Of a stretch of DNA of 36,007 nt, positions 24,856 through 33,975 are shown in pieces. The stretch lies in IMG/VR virus record IMGVR_UViG_3300047678_000516, positions 1-36,007 of that record, one strand, 5' to 3'. Made by a program: the position numbers and the translations under genes. Under the pieces are notes generated by a model. That model worked only from the letters and a program-made list of their open reading frames with translations, was not told the DNA's origin and did no database searches. The stretch comes from a virus. Each line of letters begins with the position of its first letter. Position 1 is the stretch's first letter.

Positions 24856-26958
24856 ATGTCCCAACTTCCCGCGCCCGGCAGCAAAGCCTCCGCCTCCGCC
24901 CTCCTCTCCCTCGTGCCGGATCAGCTCGGCGACGTGTATGCGTGGCAGCGCGCGCTGGAGGCTGAGGCCGCGCAGCCCGCGGGCGGTCGCGGCCTGCGTC
25001 TGGTGGCGCTCGGCGAGCGGATGCACGTCGCGGCGAAGACGGCGCGCAAGTATTTCGACGGCTACCTCCGCGAGGGGATGGGCTACCTCGTGGACGCGCG
25101 GACGTGCCCCGCGCTGTGGCAGACGCGCGACGGCCAGGGCGGCGGACTGAGCGCACAGGATCGCGACCTCGCCGCGCTGTGGGCCGGGAAGTTCCTGCGC
25201 AGCAGCGCGGAGGCGATGCGCGTGATGCGCAAGTGCTGGCACCGGCAGCAGGTGCCGGAAGACCTCGCGCTCCGCGGCCTCACGGTGCCGGTGACGGCGA
25301 CGCCGATTGATTCAGGCACGGGCTACCCGGTGGGATGGAGCGTGGAGAACCTTTGCCGATCGCTGCGCGACAAAAAATTCGACATGGCCGCGGCGCGGCG
25401 CGGACGCACGGCGGCGGCGGAGCACAGGCCGCTCGTCTATACGACGCGCGCCAAGCTGCGCGTCGGCCAGGTGCGGCAGTGGGACGACATGTGGCATGAC
25501 TTCGAGGTTGCGGATTATGCGCGCGCCAGCCGCGGGCGTCCGCTGGAATTTCACGGGCTCGATCTCGCGAGCGGCTACCTGTTCGACTTCGGCTTCCGCC
25601 TCCGCGTGCAACGGGAGGACGGCTCGCACGATTCGCTGAAGGACGCCGACTTCCGCTTCCTCCTGGCCGCGAGCTACGCGACCACCGGCTACCTGCCCGA
25701 GGGAACCACGGAAGTGATCGAGCACAAGACGACGAACGTGAGCGAGGGGATCGAGCGCCTGCTGCACGATGCGACCGGAGGCGCGATCCAATTCGTGCGC
25801 GGCGGCATCCAGGGCGCGTCGGCGCTCGACTCGCAATTCGCCGGACGGGCGAAGGGTAACTTCCACGTGAAGGCCGCGCTGGAGTCGCTGCATAATCTCA
25901 TCCATAACGCGACGAGCGCGCTCCCGGCGCAGACCGGCAAGGACCGCAACCAGACGCCGGAATGGATGCACGACGGCGGACGGCTCGTGGAGAAGGACGG
26001 GCGTCCGCTGCGCAGCGCGGGCCTGCTCAAGGAGACGGACGCGCTGCTCGCCGCCGTGCGCGTCATCCCGCCGGAACTCGCGGAGCAGATCGAATTCGGC
26101 ATGCTCACCCGCGCGCAGGCGATGAGCGTGCTGCAGCGCATCTACGCGGAGATTCACGGCGAGACGGATCACAAACTCGAAGGCTGGGACATGAACTGGG
26201 TGCCGGATGGCCGCGGCGGGATGCGCCGCATGTCGCGTGGCGAGGTGTATCGCCGCGGGCGCGGCGCGCTGCGTCCGCTCGACATGGAGACGATCGCGCT
26301 GCTGCTGAGCGCGGACGGATTCCTGGAACAGCACGGCGAGGAGAGGATCGTGCGCAAGCGGATGATCACCCTGGAGGACTGCGAGCTCAGCGGCGACAAG
26401 CTCCGCTTTGACGCCGATGCCGCAGGCGTGCCGGACGGCGCGAAGTTCATGACGGTGCTGAATCCCTTCGCGCCGGACGCGCTGTGGATTTTCGACGCGA
26501 ACGGTTCCTTCGTCGCGTCGCTCCCACGGAAGTGGAAGGTGGACGCGGGCGACCTCGACGCCATTCACCGCGCAGCCGGCCAGGCGCACTCCCTTGAGGT
26601 CAAGATGCTGGAGGAGCCGCGCCGTCGCGACGCCTCGGAGGCGAAGCTGCGCATCGCGCGGCAGAGTCACAACACGGCGTTGCTCGGCGGAAACACACCC
26701 GCGGACAAGGCGCGACGCCGCGCGATGGCGGGCCTCGACAGCGGCGCGCTGCTGAACGCCGGCACCGCGGACGAGGCGGAGGAGAAAGTGATCCACGATG
26801 GATCAGTTTCCGACGCCGGAAACGGCAGTGCAGACACCGTGCAGGAAGATTTCCACGCAGCGGATTCCGGCGAGTGGCCGGGCGCTGCGGAAAACGAATC
26901 GGCCCCGGAAACGGAAGCCGCGCCCACCCAAACCTTCGACGCGAGCGCCCTACTCTGA
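24856..26958 (+). CDS. MuA-like DDE transposase
   Basis: The 700-residue protein has an N-terminal helix-rich DNA-binding part with an HTH near 48-75 (LVALGERMHVAAKTARKYFD), then a catalytic rve-type core: QWDDMWHDF (208-216, first acid), VIEHKTTNV (287-295, where most homologues have Asp-His or Asp-Asn) and KAALESLHNLIHN (339-351, final Glu). The distance of about 54 residues between the second and third acid is normal. The Mu-type C-terminal beta-barrel and linker follow. Near residue 643 an in-frame palindrome is translated as KVIHDGSVSD. It drives strand transfer with the ATPase encoded next. Confidence 0.85.
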   Translation: MSQLPAPGSKASASALLSLVPDQLGDVYAWQRALEAEAAQPAGGRGLRLVALGERMHVAAKTARKYFDGYLREGMGYLVDARTCPALWQTRDGQGGGLSAQDRDLAALWAGKFLRSSAEAMRVMRKCWHRQQVPEDLALRGLTVPVTATPIDSGTGYPVGWSVENLCRSLRDKKFDMAAARRGRTAAAEHRPLVYTTRAKLRVGQVRQWDDMWHDFEVADYARASRGRPLEFHGLDLASGYLFDFGFRLRVQREDGSHDSLKDADFRFLLAASYATTGYLPEGTTEVIEHKTTNVSEGIERLLHDATGGAIQFVRGGIQGASALDSQFAGRAKGNFHVKAALESLHNLIHNATSALPAQTGKDRNQTPEWMHDGGRLVEKDGRPLRSAGLLKETDALLAAVRVIPPELAEQIEFGMLTRAQAMSVLQRIYAEIHGETDHKLEGWDMNWVPDGRGGMRRMSRGEVYRRGRGALRPLDMETIALLLSADGFLEQHGEERIVRKRMITLEDCELSGDKLRFDADAAGVPDGAKFMTVLNPFAPDALWIFDANGSFVASLPRKWKVDAGDLDAIHRAAGQAHSLEVKMLEEPRRRDASEAKLRIARQSHNTALLGGNTPADKARRRAMAGLDSGALLNAGTADEAEEKVIHDGSVSDAGNGSADTVQEDFHAADSGEWPGAAENESAPETEAAPTQTFDASALL
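26785..26809. repeat. palindromic element, copy c (in transposase gene)
   Basis: Reads AAAGTGATCCA, CGA, TGGATCAGTTT: the reverse complement of copy a with a single base change. It lies in the C-terminal tail of the transposase and keeps the frame open. Confidence 0.9.
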
Positions 26959-26989
26959 GTCGGAAAAATCCAAACACCCAAGCACATCA

Positions 26990-28189
26990 ATGACACTCGA
27001 CGAAAAAAAACAAGACAGCAACACCCTCATTCCCGCCGGCTCCAATGAGCTGGCGGAAGTGAACCAGGGCGACACGACGCGCGCCTCATGGCCCATCTCC
27101 GCGGCGGACCTGCGCTCGAATATCGCGCACTGCTCGGAGACCGGGCGCGATGCGATTGTGCGCGCCTTCATGTGGTGCATCGATCCCGCGCACCCGGTGC
27201 GGAAGTCGGAGTTCGCCCGCGAGGTGGACTACGACGAAAACACGATCTACAAAATCCTCACCGGGCGCTACAAGGGGCCGGACGGCAAGCTGCTCGACAT
27301 CCCGGAGAAGCTCATCAAGGGCATCGCGAATTTCATGGAGCGGGAGAAAGACCGCTTCCTCGGCAAGAAGCAGGAGTTCATCGAGTCGCCCACGGCGAAG
27401 CGCATCTTCACCACGTGCGACCTGGTGCGCGAGTCGCGCAGCATGGGGATGATCTGGGGGCCGTCGCACTGCGGGAAATCCTGGGCGCTGGAGCACTACC
27501 AGCAGACGAACAACCACGGGCGCACCATCTACGCGCGCCTCGGCGCGGCGGACGGCCTCGGCGGCATGCTGAAGCTCATGAGTGTGGCCGCGGGGAACAG
27601 CGACAAGGCGAACGGCGCGGACATCAAGTCGCGGCTCAAGCGCGCGCTCGCGCCGGGAATGCTGTTCATCTTGGACGAGGTCCACGAGCTGGCCTACACC
27701 TACCAGACGAGCAGTTTTTTCAAGTGCATCGAGGTGATCCGTGAAATTCACGATAAGACGAAGTGCGGCTTCCTCCTCTGCGGCACGCAGCTCATGCTCG
27801 ACGACATGAACGCGGCGCGCGCGGGCGAGCTGCAGCAGGTGTGGCGGCGCGGGGTTCACAAGCTCGACCTCACCAATTCGCCGACGAAGGCCGACGTGGC
27901 GGCGATCGTGCAGCACGCCGGGCTGGAGATGCCCGGCGCGAAGCTCACCGTGCGCGTGGCCGGCACGGGCGGCAATGAGATCACGGAGCACCCGCTCGCC
28001 ATCCTGCGCCAGCTCGCGAAGGACGACGGCCTGCTGAGCATCACCGAGCGCCTGCGCTACGGTCGCAAGCTCGCGCAGAAGGAGAAGCCCGCGCGCCGGC
28101 TGTCCTGGCACTCCTTCACGCTCGCGCACCTCATGATCAAGGCGCAGCAGACGCCGCAGGAGAGTGGGTGGGACAAGGAGGAGGCATGA
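26990..28189 (+). CDS. MuB-like AAA ATPase, transposition target protein
   Basis: Start at ATG 26990 (MTLDEKKQDSNTLIPAG); the longer open frame from 26798 lies inside the transposase gene. The 399-residue protein has an N-terminal HTH-like segment (SEFAREVDYDENTIYKILTG, 73-92), a Walker A (GPSHCGKS, 157-164) and a Walker B (LFILDE, 225-230), with LLCGTQ as sensor region. This is the MuB layout: ATP-dependent DNA binding that selects targets and activates MuA. It follows the transposase by 31 bp. The C-terminal part ends in basic helices. Confidence 0.85.
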   Translation: MTLDEKKQDSNTLIPAGSNELAEVNQGDTTRASWPISAADLRSNIAHCSETGRDAIVRAFMWCIDPAHPVRKSEFAREVDYDENTIYKILTGRYKGPDGKLLDIPEKLIKGIANFMEREKDRFLGKKQEFIESPTAKRIFTTCDLVRESRSMGMIWGPSHCGKSWALEHYQQTNNHGRTIYARLGAADGLGGMLKLMSVAAGNSDKANGADIKSRLKRALAPGMLFILDEVHELAYTYQTSSFFKCIEVIREIHDKTKCGFLLCGTQLMLDDMNAARAGELQQVWRRGVHKLDLTNSPTKADVAAIVQHAGLEMPGAKLTVRVAGTGGNEITEHPLAILRQLAKDDGLLSITERLRYGRKLAQKEKPARRLSWHSFTLAHLMIKAQQTPQESGWDKEEA

Positions 28190-28777: not shown

Positions 28778-29022
28778 TGCAGGGCGTGCCGCCAAATCAC
28801 GCCGCCACGTCGCCAGTGAACAGCGAAGCTGTTCGCTGCGACGGCTGGATCTGCGCCACGGCACCCCAAGTGTCCAACCGGCCCACTGCGGCGGGGTGGT
28901 GGTGGTGCCGACATAACGCAGAGCTATGCGGCGGCGGGCCAGAAGGAGGTTCAAATGCACGCTGACCGCCATGCCCGCCGTCCTGCATCAGCGGCTGGTT
29001 CTTTTTCGCTTGGTGAAATTAC
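28778..29022. other. gap with hairpins, possible short ORF
   Basis: An ATG at 28777 could open a 62-codon frame to 28965 with GGAGG upstream, but its product (a Gly/Trp/Cys-rich chain) looks non-coding. A hairpin GAACAGC-GAA-GCTGTTC lies at 28818-28834. A larger imperfect palindrome spans 28911-29000 (own entry). Confidence 0.4.
28911..29000. other. attC-like imperfect palindrome (tentative)
   Basis: Outer AAC (28915-28917) and GTT (28998-29000) enclose inner arms: GCTATGCGGCGGCGGGC (28923-28939) against GCCCGCCGTCCTGCATCAGC (28973-28992). The arms pair imperfectly. It lies just after the 3' end of a minus-strand small-gene cassette, where an integron attC would be. The outer sites do not fit the attC core consensus well. 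Confidence 0.25.
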
Positions 29023-29065
29023 TCAGCGCGTCGGATCGGAAATGCCTCTTGGAGCGGGCGGAGTT
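28995..29065. repeat. 71-bp cassette 3'-end repeat, copy A
   Basis: Matches 33321-33391 at 65 of 71 positions by my count. It covers the last codons and the stop of the 54-aa gene plus about 28 bp downstream of it (TGAGTAATTTCACC and GAACCAG on the minus strand). The non-coding part is as conserved as the coding part. Confidence 0.9.
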
Positions 29066-29365: not shown

Positions 29366-29644
29366 TTACTTGTTTTCTGCGGTGAATGCTTCAGTCAGGT
29401 CGGTCGCTGCCTCGAAGTCTGCCTGCATCTCGGCGCTGGGCTTCGCGGCGTAAAACTTCCGGCAGATGATGGTCTCGACTTCTTCGATGATGGTCGCCGC
29501 CACGACGGAGGCGGAAGACCACGAACCGAAGTCGTTCGTGTAGCTTCCGACTTTGATCTTCATGTCGTTGGCTGCGCCTTTTCCGGCGAGGGCGGCTTTG
29601 GCTTTTTCGACTGCGGCGGTAGCGATGGTCAGGAGTTCGTTCAT
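29366..29644 (-). CDS. unknown small protein, 92 aa (cassette A)
   Basis: The first gene of the minus-strand trio. It is mainly helical (LLTIATAAVEKAKAALAG, AATIIEEVETIICRKF, MQADFEAATDLTEAFTAE). An 8-bp perfect inverted repeat lies immediately upstream of the start. No family recognised. Confidence 0.6.
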   Translation of the reverse strand: MNELLTIATAAVEKAKAALAGKGAANDMKIKVGSYTNDFGSWSSASVVAATIIEEVETIICRKFYAAKPSAEMQADFEAATDLTEAFTAENK

Positions 29645-29709: not shown

Positions 29710-29757
29710 TTCTTCGGGCGGCGGGGGTGCGGAGCTTCTTCGTAACCTCCCATCGGC
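29710..29757. repeat. cassette upstream repeat, copy A
   Basis: TTCTTCGGGCGGCGGGGGTG (29710-29729) is identical to 33935-33954. A second block, AACCTCC then CATCGGC (29744-29757), matches 33963-33975 with one base fewer there. It lies upstream of each minus-strand cassette. Confidence 0.8.
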
Positions 29758-29942: not shown

Positions 29943-31172
29943 ATGAAACCAACCACACTACAGCGATTCGGGGCCACGGTGCTTCATGCAGCGGGCCTGA
30001 AAACTACACGCAACTTCCTTGATGTCTTCGCCGACCGATTGCGGCAGGCGGGCGTCGAGCCAACGCTGATGGCCTTCGGGCAAAAGCTTTGCGATCTCGT
30101 GGACGCGCAGGCGTCCGAACTCCGACAGCAGGCCGTGACTGACTTCCTGTCGGTCTGCACGGGAGCCGACGCGCCCGGTGCGCTGAAATGGATTCGCGAA
30201 AATCACACGCTCTTTGCGGTGCTTTGCGCCAGCAAGTTTGCCGACGCGGGCGCGGCGATGGACGGCATGGAGATCGCGCAACTCGACACGGCGCAAGACG
30301 AGGCGCTGCCTCGCCGGCCTTACCAGATCGGCATCCGCGCGCAGTGCCTCACGCCGCTCTCGCATGGTGCGGACGGCAAGAGTGGCAACGCCACTCTCTT
30401 CCGTCGCATGGCCGTGCTCGGAAAAAACGGGACGTTGCTTGAACTGCCTTACTACGCTGGCAACGCGATTCGCGGGCAGGTGCGCGACCTCCTCGCGGAT
30501 CACTTCGCGGTCGCGCTCGGCCTCAAGCCGCGCCGCGACAAGCCGCCCTTCGCGCTCTGGTTCTTTCACGCGCTCTATGCGGGCGGCGCGCTGGAGGAGG
30601 CGAGCGCCGCGACGAAAGCCATCGCCACGAATCTCGGCGATCATGGCGCAGTGCGGAGCGACGGCGTGCGCGAGTTCCGCGACACGTTGCCGGCGCTCTC
30701 ACTGCTCGGCGCGGCGATGGGCAACAAGGTGCTCAGCGGCCATGCCGATTTCGGCGACTGGCGGCCTGTCTGTCGCGAGTGGGGCAACGGCGGGAAAGCA
30801 AGCGCCAGCGAGCTTTTCGAGTGGCTGTATCTCACGCGCCGCGAGGACCACGAAGACCACGACGAACATCACGGCATGATCGCCGTGACGGAAACCCTCA
30901 AGCCCGGCACGACGCTGGAGGGCGGGATCGACCTGCGCTTGCACGTCGGCGATCTCTCTCGTTCCGCGCTCGGCGTGGGCCTGCGGCTGCTGCGCGAGCG
31001 CGCCCGCATCGGCGCGCAGAATCGCGCGGATCTCGGAAGCGTCGAAATCGAACTGACCAACGCGCCCGACCCGGAGCCTTACGAGGTGTATCTCCGCGAC
31101 AACCAAAAGCGCATCCTCGACTACCTCGAAAAGATCGGAGGCATCCATGCACGCGACGCGTTTGATCTTTGA
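29943..31172 (+). CDS. csf2: Csf2 (Cas7-like) with helical N-terminal extension
   Basis: Start at ATG 29943 (MKPTTLQRFG); an upstream ATG at 29886 would add 19 unlikely residues. Of 409 residues, about 127-375 form a RAMP/Cas7-like part: YQIGIRAQCLTPLSHGADGK (127-146), LFRRMAVLG, LELPYYAGNAIRGQVRDLL (167-184), with the small-residue GNxIRG motif of Csf2, and the late block LEGGIDLRLHV to RADLGSVEIEL. Cas7 subunits form the guide-RNA backbone of class 1 complexes. Residues 1-120 are all-helical and absent from ordinary Csf2; they have the size of a Cas11 small subunit. A His/Asp-rich run (EDHEDHDEHH, 301-310) could bind metal. Stop overlaps csf1 by 26 bp. Confidence 0.75.
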   Translation: MKPTTLQRFGATVLHAAGLKTTRNFLDVFADRLRQAGVEPTLMAFGQKLCDLVDAQASELRQQAVTDFLSVCTGADAPGALKWIRENHTLFAVLCASKFADAGAAMDGMEIAQLDTAQDEALPRRPYQIGIRAQCLTPLSHGADGKSGNATLFRRMAVLGKNGTLLELPYYAGNAIRGQVRDLLADHFAVALGLKPRRDKPPFALWFFHALYAGGALEEASAATKAIATNLGDHGAVRSDGVREFRDTLPALSLLGAAMGNKVLSGHADFGDWRPVCREWGNGGKASASELFEWLYLTRREDHEDHDEHHGMIAVTETLKPGTTLEGGIDLRLHVGDLSRSALGVGLRLLRERARIGAQNRADLGSVEIELTNAPDPEPYEVYLRDNQKRILDYLEKIGGIHARDAFDL

Positions 31173-31833
31173 TTCTCTCCCGCTCGCGGAACGCGAGCCG
31201 CTGCCTGCGGTGCCCTTGCCGGGCATCTGCTGTATCACCGGCGAAGCCGGGGATTGCGTGCCGCGCGCCGAGCTGCTCGGCAAGAGTTTCACGGAGCAGC
31301 ATCTGCTCAAGGCTCCCGACTCGCCGCTCGTCGGCGCGGCCGCGTGGTGCGCGCTCAAGTATCGCTGGGAGCGCATGGGCTCGTGGCTGTGCGATGGGCA
31401 GACGTTCGCGCGGCTGGATCGGCTCGGCGTGCGTGAGCACGTCATCGGCGGCGTCCGCGCCGCGCGCTGGGCAGGCTACGTGACGACGAGCTACAAAAAG
31501 CACGGGGCGATGAAAGCGCCCGTGAACAGCGGCTCGCGGCAGGTCTGGCAATTCGAGATGGTGCAGGTGGATTGCAGCGACCGCGCGAAGCTGGATCATT
31601 GGTGGGACGTGCTCAATCGCGCGCTGCGCGAGGGCATCGGGCGGCAGAGCATGGAGGCGCTGGACATGCCGCCCGCCGTGATGCGCAAGGTCGGCATCGC
31701 CAAGTGGGAGGCGTTCCGCGCGTGGGCGTGGGACAAGCATCGGAGCGGCCTTTACGCGCTGCTCTGCTACCTGCTGCCGTCGCAGGAAGAACTCAAAAAG
31801 GAGGCCCCGCGCGATGAGCTTTTCGCCGCTTAA
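31147..31833 (+). CDS. csf1: Csf1-like (type IV Cas8-like) protein
   Basis: GGAGG precedes ATG 31147. The 228-residue protein has an N-terminal Cys region: ICCITGEAGDC (27-37), then LLGKSFTEQHLL, AAWCALKYRWERMGSWLC (65-82), resembling the zinc-finger part of Csf1, with Cys 28, 29, 37, 68 and 82 available. The second half has WAGYVTTSYKKHG (108-120) and DHWWDVLNRALREGIGRQSM (150-169), a pattern I associate with Csf1. The large-subunit role, contact with the 5' end of the guide, is known for type IV. It is encoded between csf2 and csf3, whereas csf1 usually precedes csf2. Confidence 0.6.
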   Translation: MHATRLIFDSLPLAEREPLPAVPLPGICCITGEAGDCVPRAELLGKSFTEQHLLKAPDSPLVGAAAWCALKYRWERMGSWLCDGQTFARLDRLGVREHVIGGVRAARWAGYVTTSYKKHGAMKAPVNSGSRQVWQFEMVQVDCSDRAKLDHWWDVLNRALREGIGRQSMEALDMPPAVMRKVGIAKWEAFRAWAWDKHRSGLYALLCYLLPSQEELKKEAPRDELFAA

Positions 31834-32476
31834 AGTCACCTTCCATCTCGACGGCACCGGGGTCTATTTCGATCCCGCCGAGCCGTTGCATCTCGACGCG
31901 CTACTTGTCTTCGCCGCGGCGGCGCATCATGGCAGCACCGGCGAATTGAGCCGCGAGGAACTGCCGAAGGACATCCCGATCCCGGTCGCGAAGTGGAGGG
32001 TCGGCAGCGTGTGGGGATGGAGCGCTTCAGCGCTCTTCCCCGATGGGCAGACCGCCGAGTCGCTCCAATTCTGGCGCAAGAAATTCCGGCAGAACCGCGT
32101 CGAACTCACCGCCGGTTCGCCGAACCTCACGAATGCAACGTTCCGCGAATACAACATGCCGATGCCGCTGGTGCTCTGTCACACGATGGTCGCGTGGTGC
32201 CTCGGCGACCGGCGCAACATCCGCCACGAGCTGATCCGCAGCGTGCGGCACCTCGGGAAGAAAGCTGCGATGGGCAAGGGCGCTGTGAATGACATCACGG
32301 TGGAGCGAGTGGAGGAAGACTGGTCGCTGGTGCGCGCGGGCAGCGCGCAGCGCTGGCTGCCCTCGCCGCAAGGCGCGCGGCTCTGCCGCGCCCGACCGCC
32401 CTACTGGAACAACGTCGAGCGCTCGCTGATGTGCGAAGTCGGAGAACCCTATGACCTCGAAAATCTCACGCGCTGA
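31814..32476 (+). CDS. csf3: Csf3 (type IV Cas5-like) protein
   Basis: AGGAGG (31798-31803) precedes ATG 31814. The 220-residue protein shows the Csf3 signature: an early strand (KVTFHLDGTG), LHLDALLVFAAAAHHG (25-40), KDIPIPVAKWRVGSVWGWSA (52-71), then the Gly-rich loop HLGKKAAMGKGAV (146-158) and VERVEEDWSL (163-172) followed by RWLPSP. These are features of type IV Cas5-like proteins, which cap the guide-RNA 5' handle. Overlap of 20 bp with csf1 and 26 bp with the CysH-like gene indicates a single translational unit. Confidence 0.8.
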   Translation: MSFSPLKVTFHLDGTGVYFDPAEPLHLDALLVFAAAAHHGSTGELSREELPKDIPIPVAKWRVGSVWGWSASALFPDGQTAESLQFWRKKFRQNRVELTAGSPNLTNATFREYNMPMPLVLCHTMVAWCLGDRRNIRHELIRSVRHLGKKAAMGKGAVNDITVERVEEDWSLVRAGSAQRWLPSPQGARLCRARPPYWNNVERSLMCEVGEPYDLENLTR

Positions 32477-33257
32477 ATCCCTGCTGCGCGCCAAGCGCGC
32501 CGACTACCAGTGCCGCGAGCGCCAGCTCGCCGCGCTGCTCCTGCGCGAGTTGGATGGGCGCTGCTACGTGAGCTTTTCGGCGGGCAAGGATTCCGCCGTC
32601 GTGGCGCACGCCTGCCACGCCGCGCGCCCTGGCGTCGCCATGCTCATGGTCGATCCTGGCTGCCCTGTGCATTGGACAGAGGAAGAGCGGGCCGCGTGGC
32701 TCGCCTACGCGCAAGCGCAGGACTGGAATCTCACGCTCTTTCCGTGGGACAAATACGCGAGTGCGCCGCGTAGCGGCGATCTCTCCGCCTACCGCGCAGC
32801 GGTGCATGACGACATGTTCTGCGACCTCACCGCGCACGCCGAGGCGCACGGGCTCACGCGCCGCGTGATGGGCATCCGGCGCGAGGAAAGCAGCGCTCGC
32901 GCGCACGTCGCGAAAGCGACGCTGCACACCCTCTGCCCGCTGGCCGAATGGCGGACTTCCGACGTGTGGTGCTACATCGTCACGCACGGCCTGCCTTGGC
33001 TCTCGATCTACGATCACCTTGGGGCAACGTCCCGCAATGGATTGATCGGCCGCAACGGCGAAGCGCATGGGCGTCTGGTTTTCCTGAGACGCTACTATCC
33101 GAGCGCATTCCGTATTGCCCGGCAGATTTTCGAGACGGTAGCTGATGCGCGCGGTGGGTCTGCCGGGGAGCGCATGAGCGGGCCTTCGGAGGTTGAGCCG
33201 CGCCCAGCTCAGAACGCGGAAATCCAGCAACCGGCGGGGGAGGCGCGTCGCTCGTGA
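32451..33257 (+). CDS. CysH-like PP-loop protein of the csf operon
   Basis: The 268-residue protein has the PP-loop SFSAGKDS (41-48), the segment VMGIRREESSAR (139-150), and LCPLAEWRTSDVWCYIV (161-177), all typical of the PAPS reductase/ATP-pyrophosphatase family. The C-terminal Glu-Cys-Gly motif of true PAPS reductase is missing, so sulphate reduction is unlikely. CysH-like genes accompany type IV-B csf operons, and that association, not the enzyme family, suggests its role. A low-complexity tail (about 235-268) follows. Substrate unknown; an adenylating or thiolating activity on RNA or protein is possible. Confidence 0.8.
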   Translation: MTSKISRAESLLRAKRADYQCRERQLAALLLRELDGRCYVSFSAGKDSAVVAHACHAARPGVAMLMVDPGCPVHWTEEERAAWLAYAQAQDWNLTLFPWDKYASAPRSGDLSAYRAAVHDDMFCDLTAHAEAHGLTRRVMGIRREESSARAHVAKATLHTLCPLAEWRTSDVWCYIVTHGLPWLSIYDHLGATSRNGLIGRNGEAHGRLVFLRRYYPSAFRIARQIFETVADARGGSAGERMSGPSEVEPRPAQNAEIQQPAGEARRS

Positions 33258-33278: not shown

Positions 33279-33306
33279 CGGCGCGCAGCTCGAAAGCTGC
33301 GCGCCG
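33279..33306. terminator. bidirectional stem-loop between csf operon and cassette B
   Basis: A 12-bp perfect stem (CGGCGCGCAGCT / AGCTGCGCGCCG) with a CGAA tetraloop lies 22 bp after the CysH-like stop and before the 3' end of the converging cassette. It lacks a T tract but would block read-through in both directions. Confidence 0.6.
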
Positions 33307-33320
33307 GTTTGCTGCGATGC

Positions 33321-33391
33321 CTGGTTCTTTTTTGCCGGGTGAAATTACTCAGCGCGTCGGATCGGGAGTGCCTCTTGGAGTGGGCGGAGTT
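33321..33391. repeat. 71-bp cassette 3'-end repeat, copy B
   Basis: Partner of 28995-29065 (65 of 71 identical by my count). It covers the end of the 53-aa gene and non-coding sequence beyond it. The two copies are in direct orientation and bracket the csf module. Confidence 0.9.
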
Positions 33392-33510
33392 CCCCTCTTT
33401 TTTCCTTTCGGCCATCCGCCTTTTTTCGCGTTGCGCCGTGCGGCCTTGGCTTTGGCCTCGGAGGTCGCGAGACCTCCGAGGCGTCCGAGCGCTTGGGCTG
33501 CCTTATTCAC
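33349..33510 (-). CDS. small basic protein, 53 aa (cassette B)
   Basis: GTG start overlapping the previous gene by 8 bp. It reads MNKAAQALGRLGGLATSEAK, AKAARRNAKKGGWPKGKKRG, TPPTPRGTPDPTR. The Gly/Ala/Lys pattern is that of a family of tiny basic proteins with a GGLATSEAKAKAARRNAK core found in mobile elements. The 54-aa protein at 29023-29187 shares its two ends but not its core. Function unknown. Confidence 0.65.
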   Translation of the reverse strand: MNKAAQALGRLGGLATSEAKAKAARRNAKKGGWPKGKKRGTPPTPRGTPDPTR

Positions 33511-33700
33511 CGGCGATCTCCTCCAGCGCTTCCTTCATCTCCTCCTCGGTAATGTCGTCCCAGCGGGTGTCGCCCGCTGCCGAGCGGTCAATGATCAAGC
33601 CCATCTGGTAGTCTGCGGCGCCGTCAAGTCCGAGGCGTTTCACGTCTTCCTTGCAGGCGTTTTTGTCGGTTGCGATCCAGTCGTGTGCGGTTGCTTTCAT
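33503..33700 (-). CDS. unknown small acidic protein, 65 aa (cassette B)
   Basis: I place the start at ATG 33700 (MKATAHDWIATDKNACKEDV); a longer open frame exists upstream but has a repeat-like, AT-rich sequence and a promoter inside it. The product ends WDDITEEEMKEALEEIAGE. It overlaps the 53-aa gene by 8 bp. No family recognised. Confidence 0.6.
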   Translation of the reverse strand: MKATAHDWIATDKNACKEDVKRLGLDGAADYQMGLIIDRSAAGDTRWDDITEEEMKEALEEIAGE

Positions 33701-33934: not shown

Positions 33935-33975
33935 TTCTTCGGGCGGCGGGGGTGGCTCGGAAAACCTCCATCGGC
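33935..33975. repeat. cassette upstream repeat, copy B
   Basis: Partner of 29710-29757. It abuts the recombinase remnant: the second block (33963-33975) runs into the codons for the first residues of the remnant. Confidence 0.8.

What the first reader, a model, noticed from the sequence alone, without database searches (positions are those of the whole stretch)
29943..33257. Type IV-B-like csf operon inside a transposable prophage
Seen: four overlapping genes encode Cas7-like Csf2, Csf1-like, Csf3-like and CysH-like proteins. Known: csf1/csf2/csf3 with a CysH-like gene, without array, cas6 or DinG helicase, is the gene set of subtype IV-B, known mainly from plasmids. Inference: this Mu-like phage uses a type IV-like ribonucleoprotein for its own ends, perhaps against competing elements or for control of host functions. 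The gene order (csf2-csf1-csf3-cysH) differs from the order I know for IV-B.
Basis: partly seen in the sequence, partly recalled or inferred. Interest (0 to 1): 0.93.

Follow-up and report, generated by a model that had tools for sequence, protein, structure and literature searches.

The report
Phage CRISPR complex with swappable enzyme
A phage carries a four-gene relative of the puzzling type IV-B CRISPR complex, part of a phage clade in which two of the usual proteins are fused and the partner enzyme is repeatedly swapped, which suggests that the complex chemically modifies RNA or DNA rather than cutting it.

Summary
Window 29943-33257 encodes Csf2/Cas7, Csf1, Csf3/Cas5 and a CysH-like PP-loop protein in overlapping frames, under purifying selection (dN/dS 0.07-0.16), in a Mu-like phage without CRISPR array, cas6 or dinG. 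(1) The Csf2 gene is a Cas11-Cas7 fusion, so the IV-B subunit set is complete. (2) 33 non-redundant loci (the window, IMG/VR phages and a Mu-like prophage of Sulfuriferula multivorans TTN) form a fused-Csf2 clade split from plasmid IV-A/IV-B references at 100% bootstrap. (3) The core co-evolves but the enzyme does not: 11 PP-loop subfamilies, IbrA/IbrB pairs or a B12-binding radical-SAM enzyme fill the slot, with at least 4 radical-SAM/PP-loop switches. That radical-SAM family was found only beside csf genes (14 of 14), also in IV-B loci outside the fused clade. (4) The S. multivorans lysogen self-targets its csf prophage: four type I-C spacers, 0-1 mismatch, all with TTC PAMs, beside a full-length I-C operon. 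Verdict: new variant of type IV-B. Best mechanism (inferred): an RNA-loaded Csf filament positions an exchangeable modifying enzyme on nucleic acid, for counter-defence. Guide, target and chemistry are not shown.

The parts
29943..31172 (+). cas11-csf2 fusion: residues ~1-110 Cas11-like helical domain, ~127-409 Csf2/Cas7
   Evidence: PADLOC Cas7 2.5e-38 and Cas11_0_IV 6e-5; PDB profile hits to Cas7c, IV-B Csf2 and Cas11c; AlphaFold model and Foldseek; hhalign to IV-B Cas11 P 2e-6
29943..30275 (+). coding region of the Cas11-like N-terminal domain (seven helices, residues 3-107)
31147..31833 (+). csf1 (Cas8-like subunit)
   Evidence: PADLOC Csf1_0_IV 1.6e-8; hhalign to IV-B Csf1 P 3.9e-16 and IV-A Csf1 P 5.6e-7
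31814..32476 (+). csf3 (Cas5)
   Evidence: PADLOC Csf3 7.1e-32; PDB IV-A Csf3 1.2e-15; hhalign
32451..33257 (+). cysH-like PP-loop ATP pyrophosphatase, the exchangeable enzyme slot; no conserved catalytic cysteine
   Evidence: PAPS_reduct 2.9e-10; family alignment without an invariant Cys; hhalign to IV-B CysH P 8e-39
28972..29065 (+). left copy of a 94-nt direct repeat flanking the cassette
33298..33391 (+). right copy of the same repeat, 83% identical
33279..33306 (.). 12-bp perfect hairpin just after cysH, a possible transcription terminator although no T-run follows
24856..28189 (+). transposition genes of the Mu-like phage: transposase (24856-26958) and MuB-like ATPase (within 26798-28189)
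   Evidence: PHROG transposase 2.7e-10; AAA_22/TniB; PF09299 alone gave no match in the window

Best explanation
The cassette encodes a phage-borne type IV-B-like Csf ribonucleoprotein. A Cas11-Cas7 fusion polymerises with Csf3 and Csf1 around an RNA of unknown origin. The complex serves as a platform that positions a co-encoded, exchangeable enzyme on a nucleic acid and covalently modifies it: a PP-loop ATP pyrophosphatase (CysH-like) here, a B12-binding radical-SAM enzyme or a PP-loop plus ParB-domain (IbrA/IbrB) pair in sister phages. The modified molecule could be the bound RNA or the DNA/RNA it pairs with. The likely benefit to the phage is counter-defence, for example disabling host guide RNAs or marking phage nucleic acid. 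Shown: protein identities, fusion, clade, overlapping operon, enzyme exchange, absence of array, Cas6 and DinG. Inferred: RNA binding, recruitment of the enzyme, the chemistry, the target and the benefit.
For: Identities and fusion. All 33 complete loci carry an enzyme gene, mostly nested between csf1 and csf3 with overlapping frames. Core proteins co-evolve (Spearman 0.57-0.61) but CysH does not follow them (0.08); e.g. L006 and L021 share 65% in Csf2 and 17% in CysH. PP-loop and B12 radical-SAM enzymes replace each other at least 4 times on well-supported branches, do not co-occur, and the radical-SAM family was found only beside csf genes (14 of 14), including seven loci outside the fused clade, and moves between the two kinds. 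Such enzymes include known nucleic-acid modifiers (own knowledge); a IV-B Csf complex binds RNA of regular length without CRISPR origin (PMC7937560), and nucleic-acid modification by CasCysH was proposed before (PMC8175902). Self-targeting lysogen.
Against: No guide RNA, target or modified base is known. B12 radical-SAM enzymes mostly methylate small molecules or proteins, and nothing shows that this one acts on nucleic acid. Enrichment of DNA methyltransferases near the module is weak (9 of 117 against 2 of 110, p 0.06). Enzyme exchange would also fit independent cargo.
Confidence: 0.42

Rival explanations
1. Guide-RNA sponge / anti-CRISPR: the fused Cas11-Cas7 filament captures host crRNAs or other small guide RNAs, and the enzyme at most inactivates or stabilises the captured RNA. 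There is no guided targeting.
For: The S. multivorans TTN lysogen has a full-length type I-C operon and four spacers matching the resident csf prophage, all with TTC PAMs, two with at most a PAM-distal mismatch and one perfect; such self-targeting in a living cell has led to anti-CRISPRs elsewhere (PMC10810201, PMC7913775). The sponge idea was proposed for IV-B (PMC8175902, PMC7937560).
Against: A single lysogen; about 20% of CRISPR-bearing bacteria self-target (PMC10810201); the I-C system may be silent or another gene of the prophage may be the inhibitor. The studied IV-B complex hardly bound co-expressed crRNAs (PMC7937560). A pure sponge does not explain why every locus carries an enzyme.
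Confidence: 0.27
2. RNA-guided interference with competing elements: the complex borrows crRNAs made by host CRISPR systems and represses or marks other phages or plasmids.
For: Type IV-A does this with its own crRNAs (PMC11656645); a viral IV-B locus with a mini-array exists (PMC10848311).
Against: No CRISPR array in the loci, no Cas6 and no csf4 above cut-off in 32 records; the IV-B complex bound mainly non-CRISPR RNA (PMC7937560).
Confidence: 0.12
3. The enzyme genes are ordinary phage cargo (for example sulfur or nucleotide metabolism) that happen to be inserted into the csf operon, and the Csf complex works without them.
For: The enzyme sequences are uncoupled from the core; PP-loop and IbrA/IbrB-type genes are also carried by phages without csf (PHROG families; own knowledge).
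Against: None of 33 complete loci lacks an enzyme; the gene is nested between csf1 and csf3 in most; the radical-SAM family was found in the viral collection only next to csf (14 of 14); radical SAM and CysH do not co-occur.
Confidence: 0.1

Closest known systems
Type IV-B CRISPR-Cas (Mycobacterium sp. JS623 Csf complex, PDB 7JHY; plasmid loci of Thermococcus, Halomontanus, Mycolicibacterium, Rhodococcus)
   Same: csf1, cas11, csf2, csf3 and a CysH-like gene; no array, cas6 or dinG; homologous subunits
   Different: cas11 fused to csf2; order csf2-csf1-(enzyme)-csf3 instead of csf1-cas11-csf2-csf3; separate phage clade; enzyme exchangeable for IbrA/IbrB or B12 radical SAM; carried by phages
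Type IV-B of Bathyarchaeia viruses (Fuxiviridae, PMC10848311) and of Skermania phage SPI1 (KR011061, canonical genes present but annotated as hypothetical)
   Same: IV-B genes in a viral genome
   Different: Those have separate cas11 and csf2 genes with the usual order (SPI1 read here); Fuxivirus has a mini-array and a separate classification by its authors
Type IV-C (Cas7c and Cas11c, PDB 11fs)
   Same: Cas7c and Cas11c are the best PDB sequence matches of the two halves
   Different: IV-C has a Cas10-like HD large subunit in place of csf1; here csf1 is present and no such subunit is encoded in the operon
Type III-E Cas7-11 (gRAMP) and III-D fusions
   Same: Cas7 and Cas11 joined in one polypeptide (own knowledge)
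   Different: Here one Cas11 and one Cas7 only, in the order Cas11-Cas7, within a multi-subunit type IV set
DndC, IbrA/IbrB and other PP-loop nucleic-acid systems
   Same: PP-loop enzymes of the PAPS-reductase superfamily, in part with ParB-domain partners
   Different: Here encoded inside a Csf operon; no conserved cysteine in the small CysH-like enzymes

Membership tests
Type IV-B CRISPR-Cas | csf1, csf2 and csf3 core genes in one operon | tested here: met
Type IV-B CRISPR-Cas | cas11 small-subunit gene | tested here: met
   Present as a fused N-terminal domain, not as a separate gene
Type IV-B CRISPR-Cas | cysH-like gene | tested here: met
   Met in the window; replaced by radical SAM in 6 and by IbrA/IbrB alone in 3 of 33 related loci
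Type IV-B CRISPR-Cas | no CRISPR array, no Cas6, no DinG | tested here: met
Type IV-B CRISPR-Cas | Csf2 groups with IV-B Csf2 in trees | tested here: inconclusive
   Phage clade separate at 100; nearest to archaeal plasmid IV-B with weak support (about 76-81); IV-B references not monophyletic
Type IV-B CRISPR-Cas | Csf2/Cas11 filament on RNA | not testable with these tools
   Needs purification
Type IV-A | DinG (csf4), Cas6 (csf5) and array | tested here: not met
Type IV-C | Cas10-like large subunit with HD domain instead of csf1 | tested here: not met
   csf1 present; the operon has no other large gene
PAPS reductase (CysH enzyme) | catalytic cysteine near the C-terminus | tested here: not met
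   No invariant or nearly invariant Cys in 24 aligned proteins
B12-binding radical-SAM enzyme (the alternative slot) | CX3CX2C motif and B12-binding radical-SAM profile | tested here: met
   C197, C201 and C204 invariant in 6 of 6; TIGR04013 and related families in 6 of 6, below curated cut-offs
Mu-like (transposable) phage | DDE transposase, MuB-type ATPase and Mu-type portal | tested here: met
   the Mu-transpos_C domain alone was not detected in the window

The most novel reading that the evidence does not exclude
These phage Csf complexes are RNA-guided nucleic-acid modification machines with an interchangeable catalytic module (PP-loop adenylylating enzyme, IbrA/IbrB, or B12 radical-SAM enzyme). 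This would be a mode of CRISPR effector action that chemically marks rather than cuts or blocks, and it would explain the function of type IV-B as a whole.
Probability: 0.28. Interest if true: 0.95.

Novelty: new variant of a known kind. Interest (0 to 1): 0.8.

Why it matters
Type IV-B is a long-standing puzzle: an RNP without array or nuclease, with a CysH-like protein of unknown role. The phage clade is a natural experiment: while the core stayed constant the enzyme was replaced many times, even by radical chemistry, which turns attention to nucleic-acid modification. It also offers a compact fused Cas11-Cas7 for structural work, a candidate set of enzymes to assay, and a named sequenced lysogen (Sulfuriferula multivorans TTN) that self-targets its csf prophage, in which an anti-CRISPR role can be tested by gene deletion.

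Tried and rejected
Flanking 94-nt repeat as a guide-RNA source: no unusual fold (z -1.2 to +1.4), two copies only, its core absent from IMG/VR. CRISPR arrays in phage loci: none that look real. Rfam: nothing in the window. Enrichment of DNA methyltransferases next to the module: 9 of 117 near against 2 of 110 far genes, p 0.06, not claimed. A general position in the packaging cluster: true for some (S. multivorans between Mu portal and Mu F, L008 between a TerL-like gene and portal; csf2 fragment L068 after a TerL-like ORF), not for the window. The three-way CysH/Ibr labels are unreliable because the two PP-loop profiles cross-hit; only the radical-SAM against PP-loop split of that call is used. 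The genome-contig scan used a single sequence and found one genome; later searches of the class, order and phylum gave that genome and one contig-end fragment among roughly 1,160 genomes, overlaps not removed. The Foldseek hit of the isolated N-terminal domain to Cas11 ranks first but is not significant by itself (E 1.8). Literature searches found no description of the fusion or the radical-SAM partner, but two key papers on type IV diversity were not held, so priority there cannot be excluded.
Full report
OBSERVATION. The four ORFs exist at the stated place and overlap by 26, 20 and 26 nt. Profile searches identify them as Csf2/Cas7, Csf1, Csf3/Cas5 and a PAPS_reduct (CysH-like) protein, without better competing hits. 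Comparison with proteins taken from named plasmid IV-A and IV-B loci gives P 3.9e-16 for Csf1, 2.8e-28 for Csf3 and 8e-39 for CysH, with all wrong pairings at about 1% probability or less. A predicted structure of ORF1 (mean pLDDT 84.6) has a C-terminal Cas7 fold whose best PDB matches are type IV Cas7 chains, among them IV-B 7jhy. The genes evolve under purifying selection: dN/dS about 0.09, 0.16, 0.07 and 0.16 against L002.

CORRECTION. ORF1 is longer than Csf2 should be. Its first ~110 residues form seven helices and match the type IV Cas11 profile (6e-5), Cas11c of a IV-C structure (0.0046) and eight plasmid IV-B Cas11 proteins (P 2e-6). The isolated domain's top Foldseek hit in the PDB is IV-B Cas11, though only at E 1.8. 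In plasmid IV-B loci the cas11 ORF lies directly upstream of csf2, overlapping by 1-4 nt in several, so a simple gene fusion explains the architecture. The window therefore holds the complete IV-B subunit set.

CONTEXT. The record is a 36-kb IMG/VR virus, Mu-like by transposase, MuB-like ATPase and Mu portal. DNA similarity to the nearest relative L002 covers 29950-33079 and nothing else in the stretch held; L002 has a primase-like gene directly upstream of csf. The csf operon thus behaves as a cassette. A 94-nt direct repeat flanks it.

A PHAGE CLADE. Searches of IMG/VR gave about 37 contigs. Together with the window they make 33 non-redundant complete loci, all with the fused Csf2. One of them is a prophage of the isolate Sulfuriferula multivorans TTN, lying between Mu portal and Mu F genes, with MuA-like and MuB-like ORFs upstream as judged from their sequences. 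In a Csf2 tree the clade splits from all IV-A, IV-B and IV-C references with support 100, and no reference has the N-terminal extension. Only that genome and one contig-end fragment turned up in roughly 1,160 searched genomes, overlaps not removed: the system is essentially viral. No record has Cas6, and none has csf4 above cut-off. A scan that detects the array of a IV-A control found none that looks real in the phage loci.

THE EXCHANGEABLE ENZYME. Every complete locus carries an enzyme, usually between csf1 and csf3: 24 have a small CysH-like PP-loop protein, 6 of these together with an IbrA (PAPS_reduct + DUF3440) / IbrB (ParB_N) pair; 3 have only that pair; 6 have a radical-SAM protein instead (families). 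The radical-SAM proteins match B12-binding radical-SAM families in 6 of 6 cases, below curated cut-offs, and keep CX3CX2C. Core proteins track each other (Spearman 0.57-0.61) but CysH does not (0.08): L006 and L021 share 65% of Csf2 and 17% of CysH. CysH falls into 11 subfamilies at 35% identity; the 13 enzyme states need 21 changes on the core tree, against a mean of 24 and a minimum of 21 for shuffled labels, so they are hardly tied to the core. The radical-SAM state needs at least 4 changes on well-supported branches. A search with the radical-SAM family alone returned 14 viral loci, every one next to csf genes and none with a detected CysH. Seven of them lie outside the fused clade; where the contig allows, they show separate cas11-like ORFs and unfused csf2. 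The radical-SAM tree mixes fused and unfused loci with at least 3 changes. The search depends on short conserved patterns, so 14 of 14 is a strong association, not a census. One enzyme position is thus filled by unrelated chemistry, repeatedly. The small CysH-like proteins have invariant PP-loop residues but no invariant cysteine, as reported for CasCysH in PMC8175902, whose authors proposed an ATP alpha-hydrolase activity that modifies nucleic acid.

SELF-TARGETING LYSOGEN. S. multivorans TTN (G001) has a 41-repeat array beside a full-length type I-C operon: cas3 (857 aa), cas5, cas8c, cas7, cas4, cas1c, cas2. Four of its 40 spacers match the resident csf prophage with 1, 1, 1 and 0 mismatches. 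In I-C orientation all four protospacers are preceded by TTC, the I-C PAM (PMC7913775). The chance of four such PAMs is about 6e-8, and shuffled spacers never matched. One mismatch lies in the seed (position 4); two are PAM-distal and one target is perfect. A living cell with these spacers needs a silent system or an inhibitor; such strains have revealed anti-CRISPRs (PMC10810201), though about 20% of CRISPR-bearing bacteria self-target. The csf operon is a candidate, not the proven cause.

MECHANISM. Established for IV-B: Csf2 and Cas11 form a filament on ~55-60-nt heterogeneous RNA (PMC7937560). Inferred here: the fused protein does the same with Cas11 and Cas7 in 1:1 ratio; Csf3 and Csf1 complete the complex; the enzyme is brought to the bound RNA or to its target and modifies it. 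PP-loop enzymes act through adenylylation and radical-SAM enzymes through radical chemistry, and both kinds include tRNA-modifying enzymes (own knowledge). The benefit to the phage is most likely counter-defence, by disabling host guides or marking phage nucleic acid. I give this 0.42, the sponge/anti-CRISPR reading 0.27, guided interference 0.12 and independent cargo 0.10.

COMPARISON AND NOVELTY. By subunit content it is IV-B; by fusion, gene order, phage clade and enzyme exchange it is a new variant. Type IV in prophages and IV-B in archaeal viruses are known (PMC11656645, PMC10848311). No paper in the library was found on a Cas11-Cas7 fusion in type IV or on a radical-SAM partner, but two key papers on type IV diversity could not be read.

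Noticed in passing
G001 (Sulfuriferula multivorans TTN): array in L083, cas operon in L085, csf prophage L014: A full-length type I-C operon with a 41-repeat array carries four spacers against the resident csf prophage, 0-1 mismatch and all with a TTC PAM: a self-targeting lysogen.
   Followed up: partly
window 28972-29065 and 33298-33391: A 94-nt direct repeat (83% identical) flanks the csf cassette 4.3 kb apart; unexplained, perhaps a trace of cassette insertion by recombination.
   Followed up: partly
window 29366-29644 (-), 33503-33700 (-), 29710-29729 and 33935-33954: Two small minus-strand ORFs lie on either side of the cassette, each with a copy of a 20-nt exact repeat upstream, as if a regulatory unit had been duplicated around the cassette.
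   Followed up: no
L093-L096, L099, L100, L105: Viral IV-B-like loci outside the fused clade have the B12 radical-SAM gene and no detected cysH: a radical-SAM version of type IV-B.
   Followed up: partly
L075 (Halomontanus plasmid), L080 (Actinarchaeum plasmid): Archaeal plasmid IV-B loci lie within a few kb of further PAPS-reductase-family genes and ParB-domain genes (DUF3440 annotated in L075), hinting that the IbrA/IbrB link extends to plasmid IV-B.
   Followed up: no
L069 4816-8449 (Skermania phage SPI1): A cultured actinobacterial phage carries a canonical IV-B set (csf1, cas11, csf2, csf3, cysH) annotated as hypothetical proteins; an isolated phage for experiments.
   Followed up: partly
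L023/L030 9938-14197; L062 1629-2285: One phage has two csf3 genes around cysH and csf1; another contig has a csf3 next to an SSB-like gene without detected csf1 or csf2.
   Followed up: no
genes within 4 kb of the csf modules in IMG/VR loci: DNA methyltransferase genes are somewhat more frequent near the module (9 of 117) than further away (2 of 110), p 0.06; an HMC glucosyltransferase family also appears among the neighbours.
   Followed up: partly
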